Below, piece by piece: positions 3,896 through 36,551 of a stretch of 61,800 bases of DNA. A program made the position numbers and the translations under genes. Under the pieces are notes generated by a model. That model was not told the origin of the DNA. It saw only the letters and a program-made list of their open reading frames with translations, and did no database searches. Numbering within the stretch: position 1 is the first letter of the stretch; the number at the start of each line of letters is the position of its first letter. The stretch is from a virus: the IMG/VR virus record IMGVR_UViG_3300006789_000022, positions 1-61,800 of that record. The stretch is one strand, 5' to 3'.

Positions 3896-3903
3896 CCCCT
3901 ACC

Positions 3904-16355: not shown

Positions 16356-18452
16356 ATGGCTAAAGTCACTGTTACTGACGCAGAAGTTCAGAAAATTCTG
16401 CGGAGGGTTCTAAACGAGAAGACGGGCAAGACCTCCGCAAAAGAGCTTAAAAAGCTGGCCCAGCGGTATAATCTCACCCGCCCGAAGGGGCAGGGAAAAG
16501 GGAAGGGGGCGCTGCAAAACTTAGCTCGTCAGATCGCCGTGCATGAGAAAACGCACCGTGCGAGGTCTTTCCGCAGGCCGACCCCTGAACAAAAAAAGAT
16601 CATTGAAGAACATCGCAGGCAAAGAAAGGTAAAGCTCAAAGGATTTGGTAAAGGACTGGGCAAGACTGCGGTGGCGCTGGGCAAAAAAATACCATACTAT
16701 CATGCCGTGCGGGCATTGGAGCAATTCTCCGATGAAGATGTGATCCCTGTTCTTGGGGCAGGAAGAGAATCGACATTTGAGGGGTTTCAGAAAAGGGGGG
16801 TAAGGCTTCCGTGGAGCGATAAACGAGTCTTGACCCGTGATATCGCCTTCGATCCAGAGAGTGACGCGGCGGGGTGGAAGATCCCTTTGCTCGAAGAGGA
16901 GGTTACGCCAACTATTACACAAGCCGTGAAAGGTCCGCTCGACCCTGTCGGAGCCATGTCTTCGTTTTATCAGGCTGGTCCGAGGGTAGTAGAAGGATTG
17001 GGGGATATTATTGGACAAGCGGGGGAGGCTGCGCCGTCCGCCGCCCAGCTTAAATTTCTCGCCGAGGCAGACACCAATGACGACGGCAAGATATCTGCCG
17101 AAGAACGTGCCGTTGCTCTTAAAGAACACGCAGAAAGACCCCCCACGCTCGGTGCTTCGGCCCTTGTGGCGATGCAGAAGGGGAGGCGGGCGGCTGCGGA
17201 CGCGGAGTATCTCAAAGATGTCCCCGCTGATCTGCGGCCAACAGGCCGCGACAAGTGGTTTTACGGTGGTGCGGGGGACGCTGAATTCAAAGACAAGGAA
17301 GAGGAAGCTATATTTGGTCATTTTAGAACTCAACGAGGAAGTGAACTTCTTCCGAAGATGGAGGAGATGCTACGGGAGCAACACGAAGGCACCCGATTTG
17401 AGCGTAAGGCCGAAGAAAACCTTGGAACAAGGGCCACCGTGAGCCGTTCGTCTTACACAAAGGAGAGGGGCGAGCCAGCCATAAAATACGAACCAGAAAC
17501 CGACGAGTTTTTCAATTCAGACGACAGGGCAGCCTTCCGCAAGGCAGCCCTCGACGGCACCTTGGTTGAGATGTTTGACACGGACGGCAGCGGTGGGCTA
17601 TCCCGTTCAGAAAAAGAATTATACTTTGACAAGACAGTTGGCTTCAAGGCGGGCGGGCCAGTCGCCGCTAGAGAAGCGGCAGCCAAAGCAGCCGAAGCAG
17701 CCGACTTCATCCCCGCACCCTATGAGGGTGACCTCCCCGTCCACGCGGCTGGGTCTGATTTTGACCGCCCTGAGTATGACGGGACTGTCGGCGAACAGAA
17801 CTGGATGGGAGAGCCAACAGAGCCAACAGAGCCAACAGAGCCAACAGAGCCAACAGAGCCAACAGAGCCAACAGAACCCCCGCCCACTACAAGGGAATAC
17901 GCGGCCATGATGCGGCAGGCCATTGGCAACGAGGCGATTGGCATAGAAGAACGCAACGAGGTCATGCGGACAATCAGGGATGAGATGATCAACCAAAATC
18001 TCACCTCCTTTGAAGAGTTCAATCAGATCGGTCGCCAGATGCTGGAAGAGGCCCCCGCCCGAAAAGCTGCCGCACACGTAGCTTACCTCCGGTCCCCCGC
18101 AGGGAGCGACTGGGTAAAGACACCGGGCCTAGATAGCCTTGCAGCTTTGCAGAAAGCCCCCTTCGGAAGAGGCACCGCATTGGAAGGTTCCGTCGGTGGA
18201 CTCAAAGATGAGTCCCGCCAACTTGAATCCACAGGTGGGAGACTCCGCCGTAAGGCGCGTGAACTGGAGGGCATGGGTCACCGCTCTGTCGCGGCCCAAG
18301 TCCGAGCCGCAGCACCCCGCCGACCCCTCATGTCCCAGCGGGATCGGCTAGAACTGGAAAAAAAGAAAAAGGCCCTCGCAGCAGAACAAGCAGCAGCACA
18401 AGCACTCATCAGCAAAGGTGAAGAAAATATCAACGCAAACATAGTGTCGTAG
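16356..18452 (+). CDS. Probable internal virion protein with two EF-hand loops
   Basis: A 698-residue mostly helical, charged protein. Two canonical 12-residue EF-hand calcium loops are present: residues 239-250 (DTNDDGKISAEE) and 408-419 (DTDGSGGLSRSE), each with the coordinating residues at positions 1, 3, 5 and 12. An (EPT)7 tandem tract follows at about 486-506. Near the C-terminus (about 655-668) is RPLMSQRDRLELE, which recurs in the next protein. The basic N-terminus could bind DNA. Calcium sensing during assembly or entry is an inference. It is three bases upstream of the next gene. Confidence 0.65.
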   Translation: MAKVTVTDAEVQKILRRVLNEKTGKTSAKELKKLAQRYNLTRPKGQGKGKGALQNLARQIAVHEKTHRARSFRRPTPEQKKIIEEHRRQRKVKLKGFGKGLGKTAVALGKKIPYYHAVRALEQFSDEDVIPVLGAGRESTFEGFQKRGVRLPWSDKRVLTRDIAFDPESDAAGWKIPLLEEEVTPTITQAVKGPLDPVGAMSSFYQAGPRVVEGLGDIIGQAGEAAPSAAQLKFLAEADTNDDGKISAEERAVALKEHAERPPTLGASALVAMQKGRRAAADAEYLKDVPADLRPTGRDKWFYGGAGDAEFKDKEEEAIFGHFRTQRGSELLPKMEEMLREQHEGTRFERKAEENLGTRATVSRSSYTKERGEPAIKYEPETDEFFNSDDRAAFRKAALDGTLVEMFDTDGSGGLSRSEKELYFDKTVGFKAGGPVAAREAAAKAAEAADFIPAPYEGDLPVHAAGSDFDRPEYDGTVGEQNWMGEPTEPTEPTEPTEPTEPTEPTEPPPTTREYAAMMRQAIGNEAIGIEERNEVMRTIRDEMINQNLTSFEEFNQIGRQMLEEAPARKAAAHVAYLRSPAGSDWVKTPGLDSLAALQKAPFGRGTALEGSVGGLKDESRQLESTGGRLRRKARELEGMGHRSVAAQVRAAAPRRPLMSQRDRLELEKKKKALAAEQAAAQALISKGEENINANIVS
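17811..17873 (+). repeat. 9-bp tandem repeat coding (Glu-Pro-Thr)7
   Basis: Seven perfect copies of GAGCCAACA in a row, in frame, inside the EF-hand protein gene. It encodes an extended, stiff acidic linker. Copy number should vary by slippage among relatives. Confidence 0.95.
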
Positions 18453-20366: not shown

Positions 20367-23300
20367 ATGTCTGAGCAAACTGATACCCCAACCGTCAACA
20401 CCCTCGGGTTCTCCGAGTGGTCAACTGAAAATGTTTATGCCGACCCGCTTGAGAGCAGGTTAAAGTTCGGGGATTATGTCCGCGAGGAGTTCATCAAGGC
20501 AGACGCGTATACCCCCGATGTCGAGACAGGAGTCCGGCAAGGGCTTGCCGATATGTTACGCGAGGGAGGGTTACTTGAGCCGGACGGAGCGAACGCGGAA
20601 GAACTGGCGCAACGCATGGAGGACATCCAGAGGGGCAAGACATTTGACCAACTCGCCCGCACCTTCCAGCAGAGCCTGCCGGAACACGGCGAAGATCAGC
20701 GGACGCTGGACAATTATTTTGCGGCTGCCGTCGAGTCGCCTTCCCCCGAATATGCTGAAGAACTGCAACCGTTACGCGAAAAGGCTGGCGACGTAGTAAA
20801 CAGGAATCGGGACCAGTTACTGCGAGTCAAGGTAGACGCAGGCGAATTGCCGATGGCCCGCCTGTCGAACGGCCAACTTATCGTAGGTGAGGCCGCCGCA
20901 CGGATGGATCTTGTAGACGCGATCAAGGCGTCGTCCGAGGGGGGCGTTGCGATGGGTGACGCGTTGGCCGCGCAGGCGCAGTTAGAGACCCCCGACGGGT
21001 TCAGTATCCCGCTGTATCGCATCCAGAGACTGGCACGGGCTACCAGACTCCTTGAAGTGGAACGCAAACAGAACGAGGATTTCGACATCCAGCTAGACGG
21101 ACTTTCCACGGAAGCTGCCCAGTCCGAGTATAGCACGATGGACTGGTTGGAGCACAAGGCCGACAACCTTGGGAGAGGAATTTCAAATTTCTTTGGCCGC
21201 ATCATGGGTCAGGGGGAAGACATCGACAAGGCAGAGGAACGCCGCGAGGCGGTAAACGAGGCACGAGGGTCCGACATTCGACAGATAGCGGCGAAGTATG
21301 CCCTCAAGTTCGACATGCGCCCCGAAGACATGGAGCTTGCGGTTGAGCAGATGGTTCTCGACAACGCGGTCAACAAGCAAATGTTTGAGTTCCACGACGC
21401 GGACGACGACGATGTAGGCAAGAATTTGCGGATAGGGGGTTACGGCCTCCCGACCATGTCGGTGCAGGCGATGATCAACAAGGATGTCTTCGACAAGACC
21501 CTTGCCGCAAACCCCGAGCTTAGTGGAGAAGTTAAAACCATGCTTAACAAGCAGCGCATCTCGCATCTTCGATCCGAGTTCACTCAGCTTGACAAGTTCC
21601 TGTCGGACTACGGCTCAAGCGTGTCCGATGAGTGGAACAAGGCGCTCATCGCTGGGCGCACTGCTGGCGTCGAGGACTACAAGATTCTTGAGGGGTTCGT
21701 CGCGGACAAGGACAACTACAACGAGTTTGCCGAGAGGGCTGCTGGAATTGGCATGTCATTCCTGAACGGAGTTGGCCAGTTGTTCGCCGCTATCCCAGCC
21801 GCGTTCGGGTTTGATCCGGCGCAAGATTACTTGGCCTCGGTCAGCCAGAAGAACGCAGACCGCCGCCAACTCGCCGCTGTTTTTGGGGAGGAATTTGGAC
21901 TCCTGCAAGACGCCGCCGAGACAGCATTCCCCATGTTGATTGACATTGGGGCGACCGTCCTCCTCGCAGCCGCGACTGCCCCCGCTGGTGGTGCTGGTGG
22001 TGTGGCCTACGCGTCCCTCAAGGCCGGAGGAACTGCCACGGCCAGCATGACCGCCAAGGGCATGTTCAAGTCGATAACCTCAAACGTGTTCAGGAAGACC
22101 GGAGCCAAGTCCACCGTCGCTCAGGCGGAGGATCTGCTTGAAGCAAGCCTGATCAAGGGGACCAAAGAAGGGGCCGTTGACATCCTCAACGCCTACAACA
22201 GTAAACTCTCTGCCCACTTGGGCAACCTTCCCGCCATCTTCATCCCTGCCGCAACCCGTTCCGGTTCGGCAACCTACGGGGCGGTATACAATCAACTGAA
22301 GCAAGACCCCAGCGTTTCCGAAGAAGACGCGCACGACAGGGCGCTCGGGGCCATGCTCATGGCTGGCACGTTCACCGGAGTTCTCACGGCGGCGTTCTCT
22401 ACTATCGGACGCGGCGGGGTGGAAGATGCCCTGCTCAAGGGTCTCAGCTACAAGCAGATGAAAAGAGCGGGTGAGGAGATCACAGGTAAGCTGGGGGGCG
22501 ACTTCTTGAGCGCAGCGCAGAAAGCGATCAAGACGACGATGAAAAAATACTCATTTGGCGGGGTCAAGGGGCTGGCCAAAAATGTGTTCGACGAGGGTGT
22601 TGAGGAGAGCATCGACGAGTTTGTCAACGGGCTTGTCACTGACGCGGCCCTGCACGAGGACACCCCCATGCTGGAACGGCTCCAGCAGACTTGGCACGCG
22701 TTCGTCTTGGGCGGGATTATGGGAGGCTCCGTCCCCCTCGTCCAAAGAACCTTCCGCGCCCTGCAACCAGACGTTCTACGGGAACGGGAAAAGACTTCAT
22801 TCTACGAAGATGTTTTGGAGGAAATGTCCGCAGACCTTACCGCGAATGGTGCTCCGGTAACTGCACAATATGTTAACATGGTAGTGTCCGACATGCGGCG
22901 GAAAGACGCACGGGCATCCGTGATCCCGTCTCTTGAAGAACAGGAGGCCGAGCTTGGGAGGAGGGAGCCGGAAGCCACCGAAGAGGGGACACAACTCCCG
23001 TCCGGCATAACACCGGACCCAGAAATGGAGGCGTTGCTTGAGGAGAAAGTCAACCCCGACTCCGCTGCAAGGGCCGTGAACAATGTTCTCGGCAGCAGCG
23101 TTCCGGCTGTCGCTGGGGCTGACCCGACGACCGTGGAGGCCAAGGGGAACCTGATGCACCAACTGGAGTTGCCAGTTCAGGAAGCTGGCGCACTCGAAAA
23201 CTCGGACCACCAAGCGGTGCGTAATTTAATTCCTCGTCGCACCGAAGGCGTGGAGCCTGACGTATTTGAAGGAACCCGCCCGCCCAAAAAGAAGGCCATC

Positions 23301-26300
23301 ATCGACCCCGCCCGCGCCGAAGAGGCCGAGGCGATTGAAGTCGGGTTCAGGGAAACTGTCCGGCAGATCGACGAGGCCGAGGCCCTCTACAAGAAGATGG
23401 ATCAACAGGTAGCGGGGGCTGAAGTCGCGGGCGAATCTTCTGTCCGGCGGGCGCTGGAGCAGCGGGTCCGTGAGGGTAAGGCCGTAAGCCCAGAACAAGC
23501 TATCGAGTTAAGGGGGGAGGCATTCAAGGACCGCGTCCTCGCCTTGAAAGACCTCAAGGTTGAACAGAAACTGGAATCTCCCGAAACGAGACTCGCCGCA
23601 CTCTACGAGCAGGAATATGCCCAGACTGAGGAAAGACAACGAGAAGAAGATTTTCGCGACAACTTTGGCCCTGAAGACCTTGAAACAGGCGCTATGCGCC
23701 AGAACAATACGGTAGCTGTTGATGGTATTATCCGAAGCGGGTTCCCACAGGTTCTAACTGTAGCCAAACTCAAACGATTGGGCATCCCCTTTAACCAAGA
23801 CACTACGTCGGCAGTATTTCTTCGTGAGGCGAACCACCAGATTCAAAGACAAATCTCTGAAGCATACCCCAAGCTCCCTGTGACCCGTCCAGAAGGCGGA
23901 TTCGCCCTCGACTCGGCGTATGGCCAAGGGAAGGTATTCTTGGACAGAGTCGGTCGCGGGCAGTTTAACAACGACCCCCTCACCATGCTAAGTCTCCTTG
24001 AGACGGGAGCGTCCATCGTTGTCGATCCGGCCCATTTGGATTCCCCAACCCTGAACCCCGCGTTCAGGTTCGCTCGCGTTGGTGACAACGTGGTCGTGTC
24101 CGACATCATGGTCCCCGAGTCCGGTGGCCTCGTGTCCGCGCTCACCCCCACAGACCGCGCTCTGGTTCTCCAGCCGGACTACACACGGGTCGTTGATCTG
24201 GTTGAGCGGGTGCTCACGCTACGCGACGAAGGGTTAAGGGAGCCGGATGCAGTAATCGACTCTCCGTTTGAGCCGAACACGCAAACGACCGCGCAAGAAG
24301 TCCTGACCCAACTGGAAGAAGGAGTCGGTATTGATAAGTTTGTCACCCCCAACACTGGGGAACTCGCCCCTGAATTTGCTGAATCCGCCCAGATAGAATT
24401 ACGTCTCAGGGCGCAGGAAGCGTTGTTCACTGACGGCAAGGTGTCTCTCGTTGGGCTTGGCCGAGAAGTTGCCGACACTTACATGGCCGAGCAGACGGCC
24501 CGCCTCAAGCACTCCAAGGAGTCGTTCGTGGCGTCGGTGTCGGTGAACGAAGCTGCCGACCTTCAAGCAGACCCCGACTATAACGCGGCATCTGAAGTTG
24601 AAGATACCTACACCCCATTCCCAGAGAACGCCCCACCACCATTCCCCGAGTCGGGCATATCCAATCTCCTCAACGAGGCCCACGCCGACGCGGTCGCGGC
24701 CTTGGACGGAGATTCCAACCTGCGGCAGAGCGTAGTCCTCCTCGTCCAGAACGAAGTGTTCAACACCTCGTCTATTGATTTCAACAGGACTTCTACCAAA
24801 AGACTGTGGAGTTACGTTGTCCAGTGGATGGCGCAGGGGAACCACAAGACGAGTCCGGCCAGCATTGAATTCCAGAAAGCCCTGAAAGGGCGGCGGTTTG
24901 AAATGGGTACTCCCGTCAGGGAGGCTCTGCAACTAATGGCGTTGTCCTCTGCGTCCGTGGAAGGGACGCCCAAGACCGACGCAGCTTACCGTGCGTTCCT
25001 CCGCGACAAAATCCGTGGCCTCAAGGGCGGTGCCGAACCGTCAGATGCGGAAGTATTTTCGTTCCATAACTATGTTCGTGGGTCCGTCGGGGCGTTGCTG
25101 CTCCGGTCGCAGCCCTCGGGCATGAGCAAGGCCCATGACCAGAAGACTAATAAGAAGGCCATCGCCGCGCTGGGTCTGAAAGACGGAGACCCCGAGTCCA
25201 TAATTGAGGCCCTAGAACGGATCGTCGGTGTGTCTGACCGCGCCCAGAAGGAATACGACTCCCATCTCGTGTCCATCGCACGACTGCTGCTCCAGTCACC
25301 CGACTTCATCAGGAGCATTGAGTTGTCGATTGACGAGACCGACCTGAACTACGCTGGGAAGTTCGACACATTGACTGACGGCACCCCTGCTATCTCAATA
25401 AACATTAACGGACATAACCCGAGGGGGGTGGCCGACACGCTCGTCCACGAGTTGATCCACGCGTATGTGACTGGCGTCACCAGAAAACCAGCCGCCCAGC
25501 AAACACGCCAAGAGGCAGCCGCGATTGGGTTGTTGGAAGGAGTAATCGCCGACATTCGGGCAGACTTCAAGGCAATATCAAACCAAGAAACTACGCCCGT
25601 TGTTTTCTCGCAACGCGCCGTCCCTAGCGTAATGGGCCGTGGCAGGGTCTACAAGTATCACGACACCCGTGTGTATGACGCCCTTGCCAACGTGGATGAG
25701 TTCGTCGCGCACTTCCTTACGTCCACAGATTTCCAGAAGTTCGTCAAGACCATGCTGGCCGACAGGAATGCCCCCGCATTATACAGCAGGTTTGAACAAG
25801 TTGTTGCGGCCATTCGCTCATTTTTTCTGGGGGCAAACCCCGAGTTTGACTCGGCGTTCTCTGCCGTTCTGGATCTGTCGCATTCTTCTGTTCTGGCGGC
25901 TGGGCCGAGACGCCGCAGTAGGCGCAAACTGATTAGTGTGGAGGAGTTCCTTACCTTGCCGAACAAGGAGTCCCGCACCGCGAAGGACTTCGTCGCGGAC
26001 AGCGTCTTCCCGACGGACCCCGCCACCAACAGCACGACTTCCAAGGAGCCAGTGACGACCGAGTCCATCGTGGGCAAGATCGCGGAAGATGTCTCCCGTT
26101 CACAGCAGGAAGCTGTGAGACTTTCTTCCGGCGTGCAGGGGGCCACCGGAGTTGACGTTGATGCCCAGCAACGCGGGCGGGCAAACGTGGAGCGACTCCT
26201 GTCACTCATCAGAAACCGCATCGTGCCACCTGAGATGCGTATGGAGGTTGATACCAGCAAGCGGTCGGTGGACGCGGACGGGAACATGGTCGCCCCGCCG

Positions 26301-29300
26301 ATGATGTATGTGGACTCTAATACTGGAACCTTGATCGTGAACCCATTGGAACTGAGTGGGTTGTTGAAAGAATTTCAGGCTAACAATGGGGGCAGGCCCC
26401 TTTCCATTCGGACTCAGATGAACATCACCGCTGTGATTGCGAACGAGGAGATCGCACACGCGGCCTCGGTAGCCACGATCACGAAGGCCGAGCGGGACGA
26501 ACTTATCAATGGAATGACCTTCGCCGACGCCGAGGAGACCGTGAGCAACTACGGCGACGAGGGCAACGTAGGCAACAGGGAGCGCCTCCTTGAAGGGTGG
26601 CGGAACGGAGACCCCGCCGCGCAGCGTGAAATAGTGGAGGAGAGGCTCCGGCAACACGCCCAGAAGGTAACGAGGGGCTTCACTACCGAGGAGGAGATCG
26701 CGTTCCTCCGCAGGAACCCGAACCTTGTCCAACAAATCATCCGTTACTTCCAACGGTTCCTGAAGAAGCTCGGCTACTACAGGTCTCGCCGCGACATAAG
26801 CCCCCAGATGAGGACGGCGGTTGACCGTGTGGTGAATGAAATCAGGGCGCTGGAGGCGGGTTACCGATACTCCACGAACCTCAAGCCGTTCGACCCGAAC
26901 AACCCTGAATCTGTCATCGAGCAGTTCAGGAAGCAGGCGAACATGAACAAGCCCATCGAGCGGGCTGATGAGCCGAGGGAAGCCGAACCCGCGATGGCGG
27001 CTTCAGGGATCACGGCTCAGGTTCCAGCAGACGCGGGGGAAGTTATTGACGCCCGTGGCTGGACGAAGGTTGGCAGGCAACTTGGGTCTAACATGGGTGG
27101 GGTGTATGAAGACGGGGAGGGGAATAAATTTTACTTCAAGGAAAGCAAGTCACCAGAACACGCCCGTAACGAGGTGCTGGCCACGATTCTTTACGAAACC
27201 GCAGGCGCTGACATCCTCCCCATCCGTCTGGCGACGGGCAAGAACGCAGCAGGAGAGGACGTTCTGGGGACGGCCTCCGAGTGGCGTGAGGACTTCACGG
27301 ACTTCGATCCACAAGATCCGGCCATGCGTAAGGCCGCCTTCCCCGACTTCGCAATCCACGCGTGGTTGGCCAACTGGGACGTTGTCGGGTTGGTATATGA
27401 CAACCTCATGGTTGACGGTGAAGGGAACGTGGTTCATGTGGACACGGGTGGCGCACTCAAGTTCAGGGCGCAGGGTGAACCGAAGGGCGGTGCTTGGAAC
27501 GAGGGGGGTTCCGAGTTTGCAACGCTACGGGTGATGGGGCAGGCAGGCGAAGTGTTTGGTGGCATGTCCACCACTGACCTCCAGAACAGCGCGAACGAGC
27601 TACGCAAAATGTCCGACGATGTCATCCGGTCTGCGGTCGAGCGCGTGATGGGCGTGGGGGCCGACGGCACCGACATGGCCAACACCCTTATTGCGAGACG
27701 CAATAATATACTTAACGTGGCGTTCGGTGAGGGCCAGTTCGTGTCCTCCGGTATTACCGCTGGCCGCGACGTTCAGCAGCAAGCTGGGGTTACTCGTGGC
27801 GGGTTGAATTCCTTCGCCCAGAAAGTAGAAACCGGAGTGGTCTCGGCAAGTATGGCCGCCGACACACTGGCGAGCCTCCCGAACAGCGACCGGAACCGAG
27901 CCACAGAACTACTACACAAGCGGACGAAGTTCATGCGAGCGTTGTGGGCTGCTCTGGGCCTTAGCCAAGACACGTTCCAAGACAGGCAGACAAGACTTAG
28001 CAATTTCCGTCGGGCTTTGAACCGTCGGGCAGACGACCTCGACGCCACTACCCAGAAACAACAAACCCCTGTTATTGGGGACGATGTCCGCAAGTTCGAT
28101 CCGGTGGACCGCCAAGCTGCCAAGGAGCTTTCTAGGGGTTTGGCTTCAGGGATCACGGTCGGTGACTTTGATTTCGACGGCGTCTTCCCTGAAGGTCTTG
28201 AATATGATAGGTTTGAAGACGGCAGGTTCCGAGGGACTCCACTCCGCAAGTTTCAAGAGGGGATGCTGTCCGAAGGAGAAAAGCCTTCGGAAGACCCCCT
28301 AACAGAAAAGGACGTCGAGGAACTGGAGGAACGCCTAAAGAAACTAACCGTCGAGGGCGAGGTAGGCCGCTACTGGTATGAAGACGCCGCCAAGAAGATT
28401 CTCGAAATAACCAACGGCAATGTTGTCGAAGCCGAAAAGCTCATCGCGTTGTTGGCTATCTACTCCCCGCAAACCGGAGTGCAGGTTAATACCTATTTCG
28501 CTATTCGGGGTTACGAGCAACACGCCAATAAAGTCTCCCGCAAAGACTATAAGGTTAAAACTGCGGTTCAGGATAACAAAGCTCGTGCCGTCCTATACGA
28601 CAACAGAGATTGGGTAGGCCGGAAGACGGACAATTTCTACAAGAACATCATGTTCCACATCGTGCAGGAAGCGACACCGGAACAACTGAGGGCGATGCGT
28701 ATCGACACCGCGTTCTTGGAAGACATCCAGCAACCAGTCACCGTGGACATGTGGGTCTACAGGGCCTTGGGCTACGATACTATCGGGCTGACCGACAAAG
28801 AAGGGAAAGGTCCGTTCGGGTTTTCTGAGAAGATGATCAACCGCCTCACCTACTCCCTGAACCAGAACCTTGCCGAGGGGGAACCCCGATACGAGGCGCA
28901 CCAAGTGCAGGCGATGATCTGGACCGCGATCAAAGCGCGTTCCGAAAACAAAGCGGTCAAGAAGAAGACAGAAGCCGAAAGCATAGCGGCGGGGGACTTG
29001 GTCAGAAGAGGCAAAGAGCGCATCTTCGTCAGGCGGAAAGTGATCAAGATGGTCAAGGGGGAGGAAACAGAAGTCATGTCCGATGCGCCATCTGAGCGAG
29101 ACCACCAACGTAGGTGGACAGAGAACGCACTGGCCGCAACCGGAGTTGATTTCGTTGAAGCGTCCCGTTCTTTCGATTACTTCGTAAACTCGATGGGGCT
29201 GTTGGCAACGTGGGAAGTAATCGCGTCCGAGCAAACAGAGATGGGGAAACGGCTCGCGGCTATGTCTATCGACGAGAAAAGGTCGTTCACGGAGCAAGCG

Positions 29301-32300
29301 ATGCGATTGATAATCGACCCTACTACCGGAGAAGACCTCCTCGCAAAGGAACTGGGCATCGCACTGTCTACATCAAAAATCTCCACGGGGGGATACGCGG
29401 GTGGTGTGACGCCTAACGTCCTGTCTACTCTTTACCCCAACAAGCCAGCAGATGTGGGGGGCAAGGAGACTTACGACGACGACGCTATCCGCGCTTACGC
29501 ACGGTCGCTCCAATACATCTTCATGCAGGACGCCGTGCCGTGGGCTAGGTTCGTTAAGCACACGAAGCAGGATGTTTTCTACAAAGTATCAAAGCGTGGA
29601 ACGACCTCCAGAGGGGGCGTTCGGTTTGAAACGCAGGAAGAAGCGGAGAAGTTCGCCGCTAGTGAAAATGCTAAAATTGATACGGGCAAAGTTGTAAAGG
29701 TTGAAGATGGCGAGGGGTATCAAATCCAGAATAAAAAGGACAAGCCATACAAGCTACGGAGCAAGGAAACAAAAAAGATGGAGGAAACCCCTGTCTTTGT
29801 TCCGACCGTCACCGAAGACCCCGACCTCACTGAGCAACAGCGTATCGACAAAGCCGATAAGGAAGCGAGGGAAGCAGCCGAGTCCTTTAGGCGAGACAAC
29901 CTGATGCACATCATTGGGGGCAACAACCAGTCCCACGGCTTTCACCTCACGTTTGGAGAAAATCTCACAGAGTCCAAGGAACAAGAGATACAGGACTTCT
30001 TAACGTCCGTGCATCCTGACTTCGGGTTCACGAAGGTAGGCGCTAACGAGATAGTTGTAATTAACTATAAGATGGATTACATGGGTATGCTTCCTGTGTT
30101 GACAGACGGGGTGTTTGCGGCTAAAATAAATCAACAATATGGCCAAGAAGCAGAACTCGCAGAAATCACAACCGTCGGAGAATACGGATACCACGACTGG
30201 GGATCTGACTCCGCTGCCGAGGGGATCTTTTCCCTCTCTACCAGATTCACACCCGCTGTTCAGCAGAGGCTTCGTGGTTGGCGGCAGGGGTTTCAGCGGA
30301 TCTCGGCCCAGCGGGTCACGACCCAGCCCCACGCCCAAATCTTCAGACTAGCTTCCGGCATCACCGCCCGAAGGGGCGACGAAGATTATGGCCTCGCAAG
30401 CGAAGCCATGCTGCAAGCGTTTGAGCCGCGCAGGGACAGGGACAGGGAGTCGGCTCTCTCCGAGAGGGGTTCTCTCGACGAACGGCGTGAGGAGTGGGCG
30501 ATTGAAGAAGCGGCAAAATTACACCGCGTAGTTAGCGCCCAAAAAAAATCACTCCAAGCAGGGGGGCCACCGATGGCCTCCGTGCATGATATCAAGCTGA
30601 TCGCAGCGGACAGGGGTTTCAACGACGAGGTTACTGAAATCTATCTTGAATATCTGAGCGTGAAACGCACCATTGCTCGCTTGGATAAAGCACACCGCAT
30701 TGACGATTTAACGACGACGGAGGAGGCGACGGAGCTACTGGTGGGCGAAGGTCACGGAGACGCAGACGTTAAAAGGTGGCGGGCTATTGACAAGGCCGCT
30801 CCTGAGATCGACGGTGCCGCTATTGGTGCGTTTCAATCACTAACATTCACTGAATGGGAGGCCGCGAAAGGGGGCTGGGCTGGGAGGAGTGGCGTAGATA
30901 TCGACCCAGACACTGGTAAACAAGAACCGCCAAGCTGGTTGGACAGGGTCAAGATGGCCCCGCAGATTGCGAAGAAAGCGCGGATCAAAGTCCGAAACCT
31001 CCACGCTCGGTTACAGGAGATCGACCAAGAGTTCTTTGAACTTGAGCGTCGGCGGAAGGAAGCAGACACGGCCCTTCTGTCTGGGGTGGCGACCCGTGCG
31101 AAAATTGATTCGCTGCAAAACGAACTGATCTTGGAAGTAGCCCGCCTGAGAGGTTACGCCCCGTCGCTGTATCACGGCACCGCTAGGAGGCTGAGTATAC
31201 AGGCCCTGTTCGACAAGTTCGGGATCTCCCATGTCAGGTTGATGCCGCTCCATCCAGAAATACCTCAACACCCTGACCGCAAGGTAAAGATTGTGATGAG
31301 GAAAGGTTATGACCCTGCCGAGGTGCCGACGGTTGTCCGCGACAGCATAGACGAGTTCGTGCATGAGCATAAGTTTGACCACAGGTATCCTTTCGAGGTT
31401 TACAAGGGGGCCACCGGAGAACACTACACTCCGGCCACTGGTCTGATTTTCCTGTCCCCAAGGCAATCACACGCGCACGGTTTCGCTATGGCAAAAGCGG
31501 GCCATATTAACCGGAAGATAGCCGGAGCTGGCTCCCGAATGAGGGTGACGGAGGATCTTATCCTGCCGACCTTCGTCAAGGTGGACAAGATTTTTGACCC
31601 CCGTAAAGACTGGAGGTTAGTTGAGGATGTTCTCAACAGGTTAAGGCGGAAGCGGCATCTGATGGGGGAGGACGTATGGATGGAAACCGAACTGGATAAA
31701 CCATTCCACCTCCCGTCCAAGGCCGAAAGACAGGGCCTCACGGATGCCGCAGACAGGGCAGATGAGCAGGCAGCAGACTACTACAGGCTCATCAACGGCA
31801 AGTGGGATTGGTGGGAAAGGCCAGAGGTCGTCGATGCCGTGTTTGACTTGGGGTTTGACGCGATGCTCGTGTCTGAAAGTCCCGACTCACACGGGGTGCA
31901 GTCGGACGGACGAATGAATCTCGCGGTGCGTGACCCCGAGAAGCTCAAGACCGCACACCCCAGAACCTACGACAGGGACGGGAACCTCATCCCGCCATCG
32001 AAGCGGTTCGACGAGAGCAAGGACGCCCACATGTATTCAGGAATCACGACCCAGTTCGGTTGGACGGGGGACGAGGAACTGACCGCAGAGCAGACCAAGG
32101 AACTGGGGGAGATCCAGAAAGAACACGACAGCATCCTTAACGAGTATAAACATATTCTGGATAAGGGATCGCAGGCATGGCGTGGTGATGGTGGACGACA
32201 CAGGCGGAACGTCTTAACGGGACTGTCCCGCACAGAAGAAGTTCATCAAGGTTACCGATGGGACTTCATGGGCGAAGACGACTTGGGGTTCGGGTTTACT

Positions 32301-35300
32301 CCAGACCCCGAGCAGTATGAGGAGAACGCGGGCCAATTCGGGGCGGTGCCTGAGATGGGCATAGCAAATGTTACGATAGCTGAAATCGCCGCCCGACTTC
32401 AACCGCTCGTGAACAGGGCGGCAGAGATAGCGGGGTGGTCCCACAGACACATGTATCACGGAACGTCCTACGCTGAACAACCAGCAGGGGAACTGCCGTT
32501 CTGGAAGGAGCAGCCCGAACCCCACCGCCCCACGTTTGGCACGTTCGACCCCACTAAGTCCGATTACGCCGGACCAAAAGGACTCGTCTTCTTCTCGCCG
32601 AAAGTCCACAGGGCCGAAGAGTTTATAGGGATGCAGGAGGGAGGAGGCGGCCACGCGATCATTCCGGTGGTCACGAAAGCAGACATGAACATCTTCGACC
32701 CCCGCACCAACTGGGAAGAGTTCGTGGATGTTATTGTCATGTATCACGCCCTTGAATACCTCGGCCCCGAAGCCGAGGGCATGACGGACGAGGAGATCGT
32801 TCAACGGTTCATCGACGACAACACGGCGAAAGGCAAGGCTGGCGAGGCTTTCACTGACCAGAGCATGAATAGGATCAAAACAGGGAACTGGATCTACTGG
32901 GAGAAGCCGCTTGTCGTGGACGCGATCATGGCCAAATACGACGGGATGTTGGTTTCTGAGCCTGTTACCTTCAGCAAAGAACAGTTAGACGAAGCTGGCC
33001 TCGTTAAGGACGAGCATATGAACCTCGCCTTGCGTAACCCCAGCCTAGTCAAGAGCGTGGCACCGATCACCTTGGACTCAAAGGGGGAGATCGTCCCACT
33101 GAGCGAGCGGTTCAACCCAGCCAGCCCCGCGTTCATCCACTCCGGCATCACGTTCGGTGACGCGTCCGACCTCCCGTCCGAGTTCAACTCGGAGGGCGTG
33201 GACTACAGCCAGTTCATCGAGGTTCTGGAGATGCCCTTCATCGAGAAGGGACCGTTCCAGAAAGTGAAGGGAACGTGGAGGAAACTGTTCAAGGGCGAGA
33301 CCGACCCAACTGTGCAGCGTTACGTCCGGCAGCGGGACGCGTTCCTCAGAACGAACGACAAGATCGTCGAGGAATACCACTCCAAGTATAAGTCTGCTCT
33401 GGAGAAGGACTTCCCGAACCCCGACGACATCCCGTGGGACGACATCCAAGCAGCCACCGGAACCACTGACAACATCGACCCAGACCCAGACAACGTGTTG
33501 CTGGATGCACGGAACAAGGAGAAGGATGCAGCCCACGCCCAGTATCAGGCCGACCTCGCTACCGAGTATGCGAAGCACAAGCAGGCGGAAGATGCCGAGA
33601 AGGCAAAGATCGCCACCGAACCGGACCCAGACAAGCGCAAGACCCTCTACAGGGCAGCGGCAGACGCACGGAGGGCAAAGCAAAAGGCTTCAAAAGCGGC
33701 GCTCGGGACTACCAAGGGAGCCGCCGACGAAGCGGCCCAGCAAAAATACGAAGACGCCAAGGACAAGTCATTTGAGACGAAGAAGGCAGACATGATCAAG
33801 GACAGGAACGAGGCGTTCGACAGGCTACGGTCCACCGCCCCAAGCCTGTTCCCCGTCCTCCTCGACCTCCGGCGTCTGACCGACGAGCTATCTGCTCAGG
33901 CCAAGAGTCTGTTCGGGGTGTTCTCCGCGAAAGACCTGAGCGTTAAGTTCGATAACAATATGGGGCTTTACGTCACGCGCAGGTATCACATGTTCTCCGA
34001 CACCGACTACGTCGAGCGCATCCTTAGATCGGAGGCGACTAACGACAAGGCCGTCAGGGACGCGGCCATCGACTTCATGCGGGACCAGTTCATCAAGTTT
34101 GAATTCGACAGGTTCAAGCAGGACGGGCGGTCAGATGCCGACGCGCTTGCTGCCGCCGAAGCTAAATACGACAGCAGGGAACGGGGCGGACAGTCCTTGG
34201 GCTACCAGATGGCCCGTGATTTCCTCCAGTCCTTTGACACGGACACGGGTCCGATGGACTTCGCGTCGGCGTTCGACTTCGCAGGGAAGCCCGCCTCCCT
34301 GCCCGCCAGACTGTCCGACTCCCTCAAGGCGCTGACCAAGAACCTTGAAGGCAGGGCCGAGATCCCGAAGCCGCTCGCGGACCTGATGGGCGCGAACAAC
34401 GTGCCGGAGGACAGCATCGACTCGCTCCTCTACACGTTAGGCACGGTCTCCAAGATCGCCGCCCACCAGTCATTCCTTAATAAGATGAGGCAGCAGGGCG
34501 AGGTTGACGGGTGGCTTATGACCAACCAGCAGAAGAAGGATGCGGAAAAGAAAGCCAAGACGAAGGAGGAGTTCGACCGCATCAGTTCGATGAAGCCAAT
34601 CGTATCCTCCGGTGCTGACAGTGGGCTGAACCCGTTGGCTGGGATGTGGGTGGACAGGGACGTTCACGACGACATCCAGCCTATGTTCCAGCAGACCGTC
34701 AGGGAGCCTAACGACGCGTCCTCTCGGGTGCTGCACAACGCGATGACCTACGCCCAGAAGGCAACGGGCTTCGCCATGGCGGCCAAGACGTTGGGTTCGG
34801 TAGGATTCTACCTCCGCAACATGCTCAGTAACGTGCTGTTCTTTGGTCCGGCGCAAGGATACTGGGGGGCAGGCAAGTCCCTCATCTCCGGCGACCCCAC
34901 CGAGGGGACGGGCATGTCTGCGGTCATGGCCACCGGAAGGGCCTTCAGGGGCAACGCAGCCCGTAGCAGCGCATACCTGCGGGAGCTTGAAGCTCTTGGG
35001 GTGTTCGGTGACGAGGTCCGCTCCGAGATCATGCTCAAGTTGATGCGCGGCGAGGAGACGTTCGCGTCCCTTGAATCGCAACTGCAAGACCTCAACAAGA
35101 GGGCCGCGACAATCAAGGGGGCTAAGGCGTTACAGTCTATCCAGAACACTGCCGCCCGTCTCGGGTCCGCAATGGATTCGTTCTACAAGATCGGATACTT
35201 TGAGCACGAGTTGGCGGTCATCGAGGAAGCAGCCAAGCACGAGGAGGAGACGGGGATGCCGAAGAAGGACCGGAAGTATTCTCTTATGGAGCCTTACCAG

Positions 35301-36551
35301 CGGAAGCAACACGCCGCCGACATCATCTCGGCCACCGCTCAGTCATACGCCCGTGCTCTCCCAGTCATCAAGAAGATCAGCGGCTCGGGGTTCGGCCTCC
35401 TCTTCGCACCGTTCATCCGGTTCACGGCAGAGGTTCCACGAATCGCGGTGAACACGTTCACGCTGGCGCGTAAGGAGATGAAGGATTCCAATCCAGTCAT
35501 CAAGGCCCGAGGGCGGAGACGCATGACGGGCTTCAGTGCCGTGGCGATCTTCTCCACTGCGGTCCCCGCCATGCTCCAGAAACTCCTGTCCGACATGGGC
35601 GAGGACGAGGACGAGGCGTTCCGTATGTCCCTCCCCCCTTATCTCAGAAATCATACTTTCTATTACTTCAGGGGGGACAGCGCCATCGCCAAGGCAGCGC
35701 GTAAATTGTCAGGGGGCAAGGAGGGAGACCTCACCACGTTCGACCTCACCTACCTGAACCCGTTCGCCGTGATCGCTGACCCGTTCCTCCGTGGGATGGA
35801 GCACCTCGTGAGAGGGGAGCCGATGGTCGCAGCCGAGAAGATCGTGACGACCGCGTTCCTTGAGCCATACCTCGGGGACCAGATCCTCGCCGGATCTATC
35901 GTTGACGTTAAGGAGAACCGAGACGCCAGATCAGGCAGGCCGATCTACGAGGAGTCTGACCCGCTGTGGAGGAAGCTCGGCAAGATGAGCCTCTACGTCG
36001 GCAAGGAGGCTTACGGCCCACGGACCCCGATGAAGTTTCACGAGGCGTGGAAATCGGCTGGGGGAGAGGTGAACAAGTTCGCCGACTCGCCGTTCGGGAT
36101 AATCCTGAGTGAGTTTTATCCGGTAAGGCCCCGCTCAAATGACCCAGCCGACCAGTTCTCTCGGGTCGTATACCAACTGAGGGACGAGCAACGGCGCGTC
36201 CAGCAGAGGTTCAACAAGCTCAAGCAGTCCAAGGGCATGGGCGAGCGAGAGGTCAAGGCCATCCACAGGGACATCAGGAAGTCCCGCATGAGGATCAACA
36301 GCAAGTTGTCTCAGGCCATGCGTGGGTTCAACGGACTCGGCGTCAACAACTACGACCTCTACCAGCAACTACGCGGGGCGCGATACGGGGAGCGGAGATC
36401 CAAGCTACTCTTCTCAGGGTTCATGGAGAATCCGGTCCCGACCACTGACCTCGTCGAGACCCTGATGCGGACGCCACAAGGACAGCAGCGGCTCAGGTGG
36501 CTGATGGAGGAACACTCGGAGAACCCAAGGTTCCTGAAGCTGGACGACTAG
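20367..36551 (+). CDS. Giant polyvalent protein (5,394 aa) with SGIT-punctuated modules
   Basis: One uninterrupted frame covers 26% of the window. Segments in order: N-terminal helical part with Gly/Ala-rich hydrophobic stretches (about 520-800) that could insert in membranes; a zincin-like HELIH at 1694-1698 with Glu1778 downstream; a degenerate EEIAH at 2027-2031; a kinase-like module (Lys2258, NWDVVG, Asp2345-Asn2346, Asp2359 in HVDTGG); a region with NFYKN and VTVDMW motifs (about 2670-2830); two ADP-ribosyltransferase-like modules opening with YHGT at 3602 and 4030; a charged coiled region; an LPD38-like C-terminus from about 4800. Eight SGI(T/S) motifs (Ser 879, 1429, 2213, 2461, 2594, 3330, 3891, 4259) lie between modules. 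It is probably packaged and injected. Processing at these sites is my inference. Confidence 0.85.
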   Translation: MSEQTDTPTVNTLGFSEWSTENVYADPLESRLKFGDYVREEFIKADAYTPDVETGVRQGLADMLREGGLLEPDGANAEELAQRMEDIQRGKTFDQLARTFQQSLPEHGEDQRTLDNYFAAAVESPSPEYAEELQPLREKAGDVVNRNRDQLLRVKVDAGELPMARLSNGQLIVGEAAARMDLVDAIKASSEGGVAMGDALAAQAQLETPDGFSIPLYRIQRLARATRLLEVERKQNEDFDIQLDGLSTEAAQSEYSTMDWLEHKADNLGRGISNFFGRIMGQGEDIDKAEERREAVNEARGSDIRQIAAKYALKFDMRPEDMELAVEQMVLDNAVNKQMFEFHDADDDDVGKNLRIGGYGLPTMSVQAMINKDVFDKTLAANPELSGEVKTMLNKQRISHLRSEFTQLDKFLSDYGSSVSDEWNKALIAGRTAGVEDYKILEGFVADKDNYNEFAERAAGIGMSFLNGVGQLFAAIPAAFGFDPAQDYLASVSQKNADRRQLAAVFGEEFGLLQDAAETAFPMLIDIGATVLLAAATAPAGGAGGVAYASLKAGGTATASMTAKGMFKSITSNVFRKTGAKSTVAQAEDLLEASLIKGTKEGAVDILNAYNSKLSAHLGNLPAIFIPAATRSGSATYGAVYNQLKQDPSVSEEDAHDRALGAMLMAGTFTGVLTAAFSTIGRGGVEDALLKGLSYKQMKRAGEEITGKLGGDFLSAAQKAIKTTMKKYSFGGVKGLAKNVFDEGVEESIDEFVNGLVTDAALHEDTPMLERLQQTWHAFVLGGIMGGSVPLVQRTFRALQPDVLREREKTSFYEDVLEEMSADLTANGAPVTAQYVNMVVSDMRRKDARASVIPSLEEQEAELGRREPEATEEGTQLPSGITPDPEMEALLEEKVNPDSAARAVNNVLGSSVPAVAGADPTTVEAKGNLMHQLELPVQEAGALENSDHQAVRNLIPRRTEGVEPDVFEGTRPPKKKAIIDPARAEEAEAIEVGFRETVRQIDEAEALYKKMDQQVAGAEVAGESSVRRALEQRVREGKAVSPEQAIELRGEAFKDRVLALKDLKVEQKLESPETRLAALYEQEYAQTEERQREEDFRDNFGPEDLETGAMRQNNTVAVDGIIRSGFPQVLTVAKLKRLGIPFNQDTTSAVFLREANHQIQRQISEAYPKLPVTRPEGGFALDSAYGQGKVFLDRVGRGQFNNDPLTMLSLLETGASIVVDPAHLDSPTLNPAFRFARVGDNVVVSDIMVPESGGLVSALTPTDRALVLQPDYTRVVDLVERVLTLRDEGLREPDAVIDSPFEPNTQTTAQEVLTQLEEGVGIDKFVTPNTGELAPEFAESAQIELRLRAQEALFTDGKVSLVGLGREVADTYMAEQTARLKHSKESFVASVSVNEAADLQADPDYNAASEVEDTYTPFPENAPPPFPESGISNLLNEAHADAVAALDGDSNLRQSVVLLVQNEVFNTSSIDFNRTSTKRLWSYVVQWMAQGNHKTSPASIEFQKALKGRRFEMGTPVREALQLMALSSASVEGTPKTDAAYRAFLRDKIRGLKGGAEPSDAEVFSFHNYVRGSVGALLLRSQPSGMSKAHDQKTNKKAIAALGLKDGDPESIIEALERIVGVSDRAQKEYDSHLVSIARLLLQSPDFIRSIELSIDETDLNYAGKFDTLTDGTPAISININGHNPRGVADTLVHELIHAYVTGVTRKPAAQQTRQEAAAIGLLEGVIADIRADFKAISNQETTPVVFSQRAVPSVMGRGRVYKYHDTRVYDALANVDEFVAHFLTSTDFQKFVKTMLADRNAPALYSRFEQVVAAIRSFFLGANPEFDSAFSAVLDLSHSSVLAAGPRRRSRRKLISVEEFLTLPNKESRTAKDFVADSVFPTDPATNSTTSKEPVTTESIVGKIAEDVSRSQQEAVRLSSGVQGATGVDVDAQQRGRANVERLLSLIRNRIVPPEMRMEVDTSKRSVDADGNMVAPPMMYVDSNTGTLIVNPLELSGLLKEFQANNGGRPLSIRTQMNITAVIANEEIAHAASVATITKAERDELINGMTFADAEETVSNYGDEGNVGNRERLLEGWRNGDPAAQREIVEERLRQHAQKVTRGFTTEEEIAFLRRNPNLVQQIIRYFQRFLKKLGYYRSRRDISPQMRTAVDRVVNEIRALEAGYRYSTNLKPFDPNNPESVIEQFRKQANMNKPIERADEPREAEPAMAASGITAQVPADAGEVIDARGWTKVGRQLGSNMGGVYEDGEGNKFYFKESKSPEHARNEVLATILYETAGADILPIRLATGKNAAGEDVLGTASEWREDFTDFDPQDPAMRKAAFPDFAIHAWLANWDVVGLVYDNLMVDGEGNVVHVDTGGALKFRAQGEPKGGAWNEGGSEFATLRVMGQAGEVFGGMSTTDLQNSANELRKMSDDVIRSAVERVMGVGADGTDMANTLIARRNNILNVAFGEGQFVSSGITAGRDVQQQAGVTRGGLNSFAQKVETGVVSASMAADTLASLPNSDRNRATELLHKRTKFMRALWAALGLSQDTFQDRQTRLSNFRRALNRRADDLDATTQKQQTPVIGDDVRKFDPVDRQAAKELSRGLASGITVGDFDFDGVFPEGLEYDRFEDGRFRGTPLRKFQEGMLSEGEKPSEDPLTEKDVEELEERLKKLTVEGEVGRYWYEDAAKKILEITNGNVVEAEKLIALLAIYSPQTGVQVNTYFAIRGYEQHANKVSRKDYKVKTAVQDNKARAVLYDNRDWVGRKTDNFYKNIMFHIVQEATPEQLRAMRIDTAFLEDIQQPVTVDMWVYRALGYDTIGLTDKEGKGPFGFSEKMINRLTYSLNQNLAEGEPRYEAHQVQAMIWTAIKARSENKAVKKKTEAESIAAGDLVRRGKERIFVRRKVIKMVKGEETEVMSDAPSERDHQRRWTENALAATGVDFVEASRSFDYFVNSMGLLATWEVIASEQTEMGKRLAAMSIDEKRSFTEQAMRLIIDPTTGEDLLAKELGIALSTSKISTGGYAGGVTPNVLSTLYPNKPADVGGKETYDDDAIRAYARSLQYIFMQDAVPWARFVKHTKQDVFYKVSKRGTTSRGGVRFETQEEAEKFAASENAKIDTGKVVKVEDGEGYQIQNKKDKPYKLRSKETKKMEETPVFVPTVTEDPDLTEQQRIDKADKEAREAAESFRRDNLMHIIGGNNQSHGFHLTFGENLTESKEQEIQDFLTSVHPDFGFTKVGANEIVVINYKMDYMGMLPVLTDGVFAAKINQQYGQEAELAEITTVGEYGYHDWGSDSAAEGIFSLSTRFTPAVQQRLRGWRQGFQRISAQRVTTQPHAQIFRLASGITARRGDEDYGLASEAMLQAFEPRRDRDRESALSERGSLDERREEWAIEEAAKLHRVVSAQKKSLQAGGPPMASVHDIKLIAADRGFNDEVTEIYLEYLSVKRTIARLDKAHRIDDLTTTEEATELLVGEGHGDADVKRWRAIDKAAPEIDGAAIGAFQSLTFTEWEAAKGGWAGRSGVDIDPDTGKQEPPSWLDRVKMAPQIAKKARIKVRNLHARLQEIDQEFFELERRRKEADTALLSGVATRAKIDSLQNELILEVARLRGYAPSLYHGTARRLSIQALFDKFGISHVRLMPLHPEIPQHPDRKVKIVMRKGYDPAEVPTVVRDSIDEFVHEHKFDHRYPFEVYKGATGEHYTPATGLIFLSPRQSHAHGFAMAKAGHINRKIAGAGSRMRVTEDLILPTFVKVDKIFDPRKDWRLVEDVLNRLRRKRHLMGEDVWMETELDKPFHLPSKAERQGLTDAADRADEQAADYYRLINGKWDWWERPEVVDAVFDLGFDAMLVSESPDSHGVQSDGRMNLAVRDPEKLKTAHPRTYDRDGNLIPPSKRFDESKDAHMYSGITTQFGWTGDEELTAEQTKELGEIQKEHDSILNEYKHILDKGSQAWRGDGGRHRRNVLTGLSRTEEVHQGYRWDFMGEDDLGFGFTPDPEQYEENAGQFGAVPEMGIANVTIAEIAARLQPLVNRAAEIAGWSHRHMYHGTSYAEQPAGELPFWKEQPEPHRPTFGTFDPTKSDYAGPKGLVFFSPKVHRAEEFIGMQEGGGGHAIIPVVTKADMNIFDPRTNWEEFVDVIVMYHALEYLGPEAEGMTDEEIVQRFIDDNTAKGKAGEAFTDQSMNRIKTGNWIYWEKPLVVDAIMAKYDGMLVSEPVTFSKEQLDEAGLVKDEHMNLALRNPSLVKSVAPITLDSKGEIVPLSERFNPASPAFIHSGITFGDASDLPSEFNSEGVDYSQFIEVLEMPFIEKGPFQKVKGTWRKLFKGETDPTVQRYVRQRDAFLRTNDKIVEEYHSKYKSALEKDFPNPDDIPWDDIQAATGTTDNIDPDPDNVLLDARNKEKDAAHAQYQADLATEYAKHKQAEDAEKAKIATEPDPDKRKTLYRAAADARRAKQKASKAALGTTKGAADEAAQQKYEDAKDKSFETKKADMIKDRNEAFDRLRSTAPSLFPVLLDLRRLTDELSAQAKSLFGVFSAKDLSVKFDNNMGLYVTRRYHMFSDTDYVERILRSEATNDKAVRDAAIDFMRDQFIKFEFDRFKQDGRSDADALAAAEAKYDSRERGGQSLGYQMARDFLQSFDTDTGPMDFASAFDFAGKPASLPARLSDSLKALTKNLEGRAEIPKPLADLMGANNVPEDSIDSLLYTLGTVSKIAAHQSFLNKMRQQGEVDGWLMTNQQKKDAEKKAKTKEEFDRISSMKPIVSSGADSGLNPLAGMWVDRDVHDDIQPMFQQTVREPNDASSRVLHNAMTYAQKATGFAMAAKTLGSVGFYLRNMLSNVLFFGPAQGYWGAGKSLISGDPTEGTGMSAVMATGRAFRGNAARSSAYLRELEALGVFGDEVRSEIMLKLMRGEETFASLESQLQDLNKRAATIKGAKALQSIQNTAARLGSAMDSFYKIGYFEHELAVIEEAAKHEEETGMPKKDRKYSLMEPYQRKQHAADIISATAQSYARALPVIKKISGSGFGLLFAPFIRFTAEVPRIAVNTFTLARKEMKDSNPVIKARGRRRMTGFSAVAIFSTAVPAMLQKLLSDMGEDEDEAFRMSLPPYLRNHTFYYFRGDSAIAKAARKLSGGKEGDLTTFDLTYLNPFAVIADPFLRGMEHLVRGEPMVAAEKIVTTAFLEPYLGDQILAGSIVDVKENRDARSGRPIYEESDPLWRKLGKMSLYVGKEAYGPRTPMKFHEAWKSAGGEVNKFADSPFGIILSEFYPVRPRSNDPADQFSRVVYQLRDEQRRVQQRFNKLKQSKGMGEREVKAIHRDIRKSRMRINSKLSQAMRGFNGLGVNNYDLYQQLRGARYGERRSKLLFSGFMENPVPTTDLVETLMRTPQGQQRLRWLMEEHSENPRFLKLDD

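What the first reader, a model, noticed from the sequence alone, without database searches (positions are those of the whole stretch)
20367..36551. 5,394-residue protein punctuated by eight SGI(T/S) motifs at module borders
SGIT (once SGIS) occurs with Ser at residues 879, 1429, 2213, 2461, 2594, 3330, 3891 and 4259. Preceding residues are hydrophobic, small or aromatic (MAA, FVS, GLA, RLA, HMY, FIH). The motifs bracket recognisable modules: 2213-2460 is the kinase-like module, 3330-3890 the first YHGT module, 3891-4258 the second. That fits protease cleavage sites that free separate effectors from one packaged polyprotein, or conserved joints used in module shuffling. No prohead protease is recognised in the window; the internal HELIH domain (residue 1694) could be the processing enzyme.
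Basis: partly seen in the sequence, partly recalled or inferred. Interest (0 to 1): 0.85.

Follow-up and report, generated by a model that had tools for sequence, protein, structure and literature searches.

The report
Phage cargo polyprotein with standard joints
A giant phage protein is built like a train of enzyme modules coupled by the same short peptide (SGIT), and in related phages whole modules have been added, lost or swapped exactly at that coupling, which is probably also where the protein is cut into separate enzymes.

Summary
The 5,394-aa ORF is real and SGIT occurs 7 times (0.05 expected), all at borders; the eighth motif, SGIS at 1429, is not a border. Fourteen related giant proteins share a three-part backbone: N-terminal part, zincin (HExxH) part and C-terminal part. 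Between the second and third lie 0-5 exchangeable cargo cassettes: kinase-like, ART-like, DUF7178, acetyltransferase, methyltransferase-like, extra zincins. Near-identical proteins differ by whole cassettes whose ends fall on the motif (8 ends, within 0-8 residues). Per-cassette identity conflicts with backbone identity, so cassettes move between lineages. The motif generalises to [LIV]-x-S-G-[ILV]-x and changes by lineage (SGIT, SGLG). It persists in three 'empty' backbones and at a constitutive backbone site whose codons vary freely. Cargo joints also share a DNA word, TCAGGG[A/C]TC, beyond codon need. The HExxH zincin is intact in 14/14 motif-bearing proteins; any HExxH occurs in only 24/66 distant relatives. 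Joint-delimited cassette exchange is shown. Proteolytic cutting at the joints, most likely by the embedded zincin, is inferred. Polyvalent proteins are known; a standard joint peptide serving as exchange border and likely cleavage site was not found described.

The parts
20367..36551 (+). Giant polyvalent-type ORF, 5,394 aa
   Evidence: relatives of 3,250-5,324 aa
20367..23000 (+). Backbone part 1 (residues 1-878), hydrophobic segments near 520-538 and 659-680
   Evidence: conserved in 14/14 proteins; hydropathy
23001..23012 (+). Joint 1, SGIT 879: constitutive backbone site, codons vary synonymously among relatives
23001..27002 (+). Backbone part 2 (residues 879-2212) with zincin-like metallopeptidase
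   Evidence: 14/14 proteins carry HExxH and N-x-DEF-[VI]-AHFLT; profile hit to PDB 9sfn_G internal virion protein
24651..24662 (+). SGIS 1429: not a joint
   Evidence: SSIS or SGIA in relatives; ordered helix start
25446..25460 (+). HELIH zincin motif (residues 1694-1698)
27003..27014 (+). Joint 2, SGIT 2213 (TCAGGGATCACG): end of N-terminal backbone, cargo entry side
27003..27746 (+). Cargo cassette: kinase-like (CtkA/HipT/HipA-like fold)
27747..27758 (+). Joint 3, SGIT 2461: cassette breakpoint at residue 2464
27747..28145 (+). Cargo cassette, 133 aa, function unknown; absent in L010, L011 and L108, replaced by a 287-aa ART-like cassette in L012
28146..28157 (+). Joint 4, SGIT 2594 (TCAGGGATCACG): cassette breakpoint at residues 2596-2600
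28146..30353 (+). Cargo cassette with DUF7178 (PF23802, E 1.2e-8), exchanged between lineages
30354..30365 (+). Joint 5, SGIT 3330
30354..32036 (+). Cargo cassette, first YHGT (ART-like) module
32037..32048 (+). Joint 6, SGIT 3891
32037..33140 (+). Cargo cassette, second YHGT (ART-like) module
33141..33152 (+). Joint 7, SGIT 4259: start of C-terminal backbone (SGVT, SGIF, SGVF, TGIT or SGLG in relatives)
33141..36548 (+). Backbone part 3 (residues 4259-5394), related to phage virion structural proteins

Best explanation
This is a phage virion polyprotein of the polyvalent kind. A fixed backbone (N-terminal membrane-active-looking part, zincin part, C-terminal virion part) carries a variable train of effector cassettes between its second and third parts. 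Every border is marked by one short peptide, [LIV]-x-S-G-[ILV]-x (SGIT here), lying in a disordered linker. Shown: cassettes are gained, lost and exchanged at these joints, and the joint peptide is uniform within a lineage but differs between lineages. Inferred: the joint is a proteolytic processing site, cut during assembly or after ejection so that separate effectors and backbone pieces act apart. Inferred: the embedded HExxH zincin does the cutting, in cis or among copies; a hydrophobic residue after Gly would suit a zincin cut between G and I/L. Inferred: the shared DNA word TCAGGG[A/C]TC at cargo joints reflects spread of joints with cassettes and gives microhomology for further exchange.
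For: SGIT 7 observed against 0.05 expected, only in this protein. L011 and L012 are about 98% identical yet differ by a whole 287-aa cassette ending on the motif; likewise L113/L114, L105/L106, L010/window. Cassette identity conflicts with backbone identity: window vs L010 backbone 88-90% but DUF7178 cassette 75%; window vs L012 backbone 69-82% but DUF7178 90%. Empty backbones L021, L022 and L113 still keep one joint, SGLG or TGIT. Third motif residue is Leu at all 11 joints of the L104/L021/L022 lineage and never at the listed joints of the others. Peptide is kept with free codons: window 879 TCC GGC ATA ACA vs 2213 TCA GGG ATC ACG; L021 AGT GGT CTG GGG vs AGC GGC CTT GGG. All six tested joints have predicted pLDDT below 50. 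Zincin HExxH and NxDEF intact in 14/14. Iyer et al. 2017 (PMC5512222) propose zincin self-processing of polyvalent proteins and report phage P1 DdrB cleaved before packaging.
Against: No cleavage has been observed. N4 vRNAP carries a zincin yet is packaged unprocessed (PMC5512222). Some distant relatives have a zincin but no repeated motif. Cargo joints share DNA beyond what the peptide requires, so part of their uniformity is common descent rather than selection on the peptide. Some large indels (window 1067-1125, 3360-3523) are not at joints. The second structure model is weak (mean pLDDT 49).
Confidence: 0.55

Rival explanations
1. The joints are only recombination seams. Cassettes carry a short shared DNA word at their ends, exchange happens by microhomology, and the giant protein works uncut.
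For: TCAGGG at 6/6 cargo-side joints of L104 and at none of its 30 other SG dipeptides (binomial p 1e-7); TCAGGG[A/C]TC is the commonest joint word across lineages; breakpoints fall on the joints.
Against: The constitutive joint (window 879) and the joints of empty backbones carry no cargo yet keep the peptide with different codons. The motif switches in that site too (SGIT to SGLG). Flanking DNA shows little or no similarity beyond about six bases either side.
Confidence: 0.2
2. The joints are processing sites, but for a separate phage head protease acting in trans rather than the embedded zincin.
For: Prohead proteases cut packaged proteins at short motifs (SPN3US gp245 after AXE, PMC10052503; phage P1 DarA cut by Pro, PMC12810830). 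Several structural genes of the window have no family assignment.
Against: SGIT occurs in no other window ORF, whereas head proteases usually also cut capsid or scaffold proteins. No protease family was recognised among the window genes scanned.
Confidence: 0.2
3. Each joint is a docking peptide, one per module, that binds a partner (capsid, ejectosome or chaperone) to pack or thread the train, without being cut.
For: One motif per module, in linkers, with lineage-specific concerted change as expected for co-evolution with a partner.
Against: No partner identified; the motif also separates backbone parts that need no extra tether. No direct test was possible.
Confidence: 0.15
4. Chance or a generic flexible hinge.
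For: Gly/Ser-rich linkers are common between domains (general knowledge); the joints do lie in predicted disordered linkers.
Against: Enrichment over 100-fold, lineage-specific identity of the motif residues, persistence over deep divergence.
Confidence: 0.02

Closest known systems
Polyvalent proteins of phages and conjugative elements (Iyer et al. 2017, PMC5512222)
   Same: Multidomain phage protein with zincin, kinase-like and ART-like domains; release of domains by embedded zincins was proposed there and compared with RNA-virus polyproteins
   Different: No shared joint peptide at domain borders was found in that paper's text; here borders carry one lineage-specific peptide and cassettes swap at it
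N4 virion RNA polymerase (Schitoviridae)
   Same: Giant packaged protein with an HExxH zincin-like domain; the zincin cassette of L106 matches the N4-type vRNAP family (phrog_2206) at profile positions 2103-2236, where Iyer et al. place the N4 zincin (aa 2130-2448)
   Different: No RNA polymerase module found here; N4 vRNAP is packaged uncut
Phage P1 DarA/DdrB antirestriction proteins
   Same: Packaged, ejected proteins that are proteolytically processed (PMC5512222, PMC12810830)
   Different: Separate genes; DarA is cut near its N-terminus by prohead protease Pro; no repeated joint
SPN3US/phiKZ-type prohead protease substrates
   Same: Head proteins packaged and cut at a short motif (AXE, PMC10052503)
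   Different: Different motif; here it is restricted to one protein and repeated between modules
Polymorphic toxin systems
   Same: Cassette-wise exchange of toxin domains on a constant carrier (general knowledge; also invoked in PMC5512222)
   Different: Here cassettes are internal, multiple, flanked on both sides, and carried by a phage polyprotein

Membership tests
Polyvalent proteins (Iyer et al. 2017) | Several unrelated effector domains in one polypeptide of a phage or conjugative element | tested here: met
   kinase-like, DUF7178, two YHGT modules and a zincin in one ORF; acetyltransferase and others in relatives
Polyvalent proteins (Iyer et al. 2017) | Zincin MPTase with HExxH and a later Glu helix | tested here: met
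Polyvalent proteins (Iyer et al. 2017) | Delivered into the host with the DNA | not testable with these tools
   C-terminal relatives match a virion structural family; no virion data
N4-type virion RNA polymerase | T7-like RNA polymerase module | tested here: not met
   no polymerase family in Pfam or PHROGs scans of all nine segments
Prohead-protease substrates (T4/phiKZ type) | Cleavage motif shared with other head proteins | tested here: not met
   SGIT in no other window ORF
ART-PolyVal (PF18760) | Match above the curated cut-off | tested here: not met
   no hit for the window's YHGT cassettes; Foldseek gave nothing on a weak model
HipA/CtkA-like kinase | Kinase fold | tested here: met
   Foldseek to CtkA 3akl (E 3.4e-3, prob 1.00) and HipT 8ezr (E 7.2e-3, prob 1.00)
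HipA/CtkA-like kinase | Kinase activity | not testable with these tools
   needs an assay
DUF7178 (PF23802) | Score above gathering cut-off | tested here: met
   35.5 bits vs 27

The most novel reading that the evidence does not exclude
A plug-in cargo system: a phage polyprotein in which one standard joint is read at two levels, as DNA microhomology for cassette exchange and as a peptide cut site for the embedded zincin, so that any new cassette is automatically released from the polyprotein. The joint peptide and its protease would have co-evolved into lineage-specific specificities (SGIT, SGLG).
Probability: 0.35. Interest if true: 0.9.

Novelty: new variant of a known kind. Interest (0 to 1): 0.74.

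Why it matters
Whether phage polyvalent proteins are processed, by what and where, has been open since they were described. A lineage-specific joint peptide gives exact predicted cut sites and a candidate enzyme, so the question becomes directly testable by virion mass spectrometry or a two-construct expression assay. The joint also offers a way to split otherwise unreadable giant phage proteins into their effectors, and documents cassette exchange inside one open reading frame.

Tried and rejected
SGIS1429 as a border: rejected. TCAGGG as a genome-wide signal in the window: rejected, counts equal the Markov expectation. A repeated motif in more distant relatives: none comparable. Relatives of the zincin part in one genome per bacterial or archaeal species: none confirmed. 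Close relatives of backbone parts in named phage records: only two distant C-terminal matches (none). Recognised protease or capsid families in the window genes scanned: none beyond a weak scaffold-like coiled coil. Fold of the YHGT cassettes: model too weak, no match. The zincin itself did not surface in the PDB fold search, where kinase hits dominate; its identity rests on HExxH/NxDEF conservation and weak profile matches. Other literature searches found no description of such a joint in the held library.

Full report
Check. Seven are SGIT, against 0.05 expected; no 4-mer in 400 shuffled or 400 Markov sequences was as over-represented. SGIT occurs in no other window ORF. The eighth, SGIS1429, is not kept in relatives (SSIS, SGIA) and begins an ordered helix, though it lies at the edge of that model. 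So seven joints.

Relatives. Scans of viral contigs with the C-terminal part, the N-terminal part and the zincin region gave thirteen related giant proteins with the joint, all from uncultivated virus records; twelve are complete at both ends, L108 is cut by its contig end. With the window they form one architecture: backbone part 1 (about 825-1,275 aa), backbone part 2 with a zincin (about 1,200-1,330 aa), 0-5 cargo cassettes, backbone part 3 (about 1,080-1,150 aa). L113, L021 and L022 have no cargo, and parts 2 and 3 meet at a single joint (TGIT or SGLG). Cassettes: kinase-like (window, L010, L011, L012, L108, L115), DUF7178 (also in L105, L106, L112), YHGT/ART-like with a shared C-terminal tail ...KSxxPxTxDxDGNxIPLSxRF... 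just before the joint, GNAT acetyltransferase (L104; its homologue in L112), methyltransferase-like (weak), extra zincins (L104, L106, L112), and small unknowns down to 47 and 64 aa, plus a 13-aa remnant in L108.

Joint-delimited exchange. In pairs with similar backbones I located where homology stops without using the motif. L010/window: last homologous residue 2464 (SGIT is 2461-2464) and first on the far side 2600 (SGIT 2594-2597). L011/L012: 2419 (SGIT 2416-2419) and 2709 (2703-2706). L105/L106: 2157/2162 (joints 2155/2160) and 2214/2685 (2219/2689). L113/L114: 2066 (joint at 2074 in L114) and 2350 (2349-2352). All eight ends are within 8 residues of a joint; by my estimate (7 joints, 17 positions each, 5,394 residues) a random position would be so in about 2% of cases. 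L011 and L012 are about 98% identical over all shared parts, so that change is recent. Two further variable stretches (window 1067-1125, 3360-3523) are not at joints. Per-cassette identities conflict with the backbone: window-L010 88-90% in the backbone but 75% in the DUF7178 cassette; window-L012 69-82% in the backbone but 90% in DUF7178 and 88% in the kinase cassette; L012-L114 54-67% in the backbone but 77% in the shared ART-like cassette. Cassettes move between lineages.

The joint. Sixty-one distinct joint contexts give [L/I/V/A/M]-x-[S]-G-[I/L/V]-[T/G/other] with uninformative flanks. I picked these sites partly by their SG core, so the logo is somewhat circular; the breakpoint test is not. 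Leu is the third residue at all 11 joints of the L104/L021/L022 lineage and at none elsewhere. L104's cargo joints share DNA, so this is a few independent events rather than eleven; but the two joints of L021 (AGT GGT CTG GGG, AGC GGC CTT GGG) and the constitutive joint of L104 (AGT GGG CTT GGG) reach the same peptide with different codons. The L104/L021/L022 constitutive joint lies about 45 residues further downstream in the backbone than the window's 879. At the constitutive joint (window 879) the Ser, Gly, Ile and Thr codons vary freely across relatives while the peptide stays SGIT or SGIN. This is selection on the peptide.

DNA level. Cargo joints also resemble each other in DNA more than the peptide requires. 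TCAGGGATCACG is the commonest word; in L104 all six cargo-side joints read TCAGGGCTC and none of its other 30 SG dipeptides uses TCAGGG. In the window itself the excess is slight (2 of 6). Similarity hardly extends beyond about six bases either side. Joints are thus partly copies of one another and give microhomology, but a longer recombination site is not seen.

Zincin. HE[LV][TI]H and N-x-DEF-[VI]-AHFLT are present in 14/14 joint-bearing proteins, whereas any HExxH is found in 24 of 66 distant C-terminal relatives over 1,300 aa, several of them truncated. The predicted fold has a three-stranded sheet and the HExxH helix, the description Iyer et al. give for these enzymes (PMC5512222). The profile matches a solved internal virion protein, 9sfn_G, around HExxH (E 0.003-0.007); the zincin cassette of L106 matches the virion RNA polymerase family phrog_2206. 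Distant relatives exist with a zincin but without a repeated joint (L025, L122-L125), so a zincin does not imply a joint.

Structure. In the model of residues 1429-2600 (mean pLDDT 65) the joints 2213, 2461 and 2594 lie in stretches below 50. In the weaker model of 3231-4430 (mean 49, about half of all residues below 50) 3330, 3891 and 4259 do too. The kinase-like cassette resembles CtkA, HipT and HipA kinases and occurs in other phage proteins, for example one annotated as particle-associated in Yersinia phage fHe-Yen8-01.

Mechanism. Shown: a cassette-carrying phage protein with one lineage-specific joint at every border, used as the border of exchange. Inferred: the joint is cut. The best arguments are the peptide's persistence where no cargo is present (empty backbones, constitutive joint), its free codons, its disordered context and the invariant zincin next to it. 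The strongest counter-argument is that N4 vRNAP carries a zincin and is packaged uncut. I put cassette exchange at about 0.95, processing at the joints by some protease at about 0.65 to 0.7, and the zincin as the enzyme at about 0.5.

Novelty. Polyvalent proteins, their zincins and the idea of polyprotein-like release are published (PMC5512222). Cleavage of packaged phage proteins at short motifs is known (PMC10052503, PMC12810830). I found no description of a shared joint peptide at every module border of a phage polyprotein, of its switch between lineages, or of cassette exchange at it. Hence a new variant of a known kind.

Noticed in passing
window residues about 2025-2150 of the giant ORF (26440-26815): Conserved NEEIAHAAS ... 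EERLRQHAQKVTRGFTTEEE stretch before joint 2213 looks like a second, degenerate zincin-like unit (EExxH instead of HExxH).
   Followed up: no
L108, residues 3089 and 3102: Two SGIT joints only 13 residues apart, as if a cassette had been lost and its two joints left behind.
   Followed up: partly
L105 3142-3188 and L106 3634-3680: A 47-aa mini-cassette (SGVQ...SGIF) sits just before the C-terminal backbone in both.
   Followed up: no
window 16356-18452: 698-aa protein upstream of the giant gene with EF-hand-like calcium-loop matches (sub-threshold) and no phage family assignment.
   Followed up: no
window 14009-38238: Gene order (three smaller genes, giant virion protein, then an opposite-strand helicase) resembles Pelagibacter phage HTVC027P gp82-gp87.
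   Followed up: partly
window residues 3360-3523 and 1067-1125 of the giant ORF: Large indels relative to relatives that are not at joints.
   Followed up: partly
phage records (e.g. OR261032.1, PV565041.1, MK814760.1): The kinase-like cassette is widespread in other phage multidomain proteins, in Gordonia phage Forza directly after the portal gene, without an SGIT joint.
   Followed up: partly
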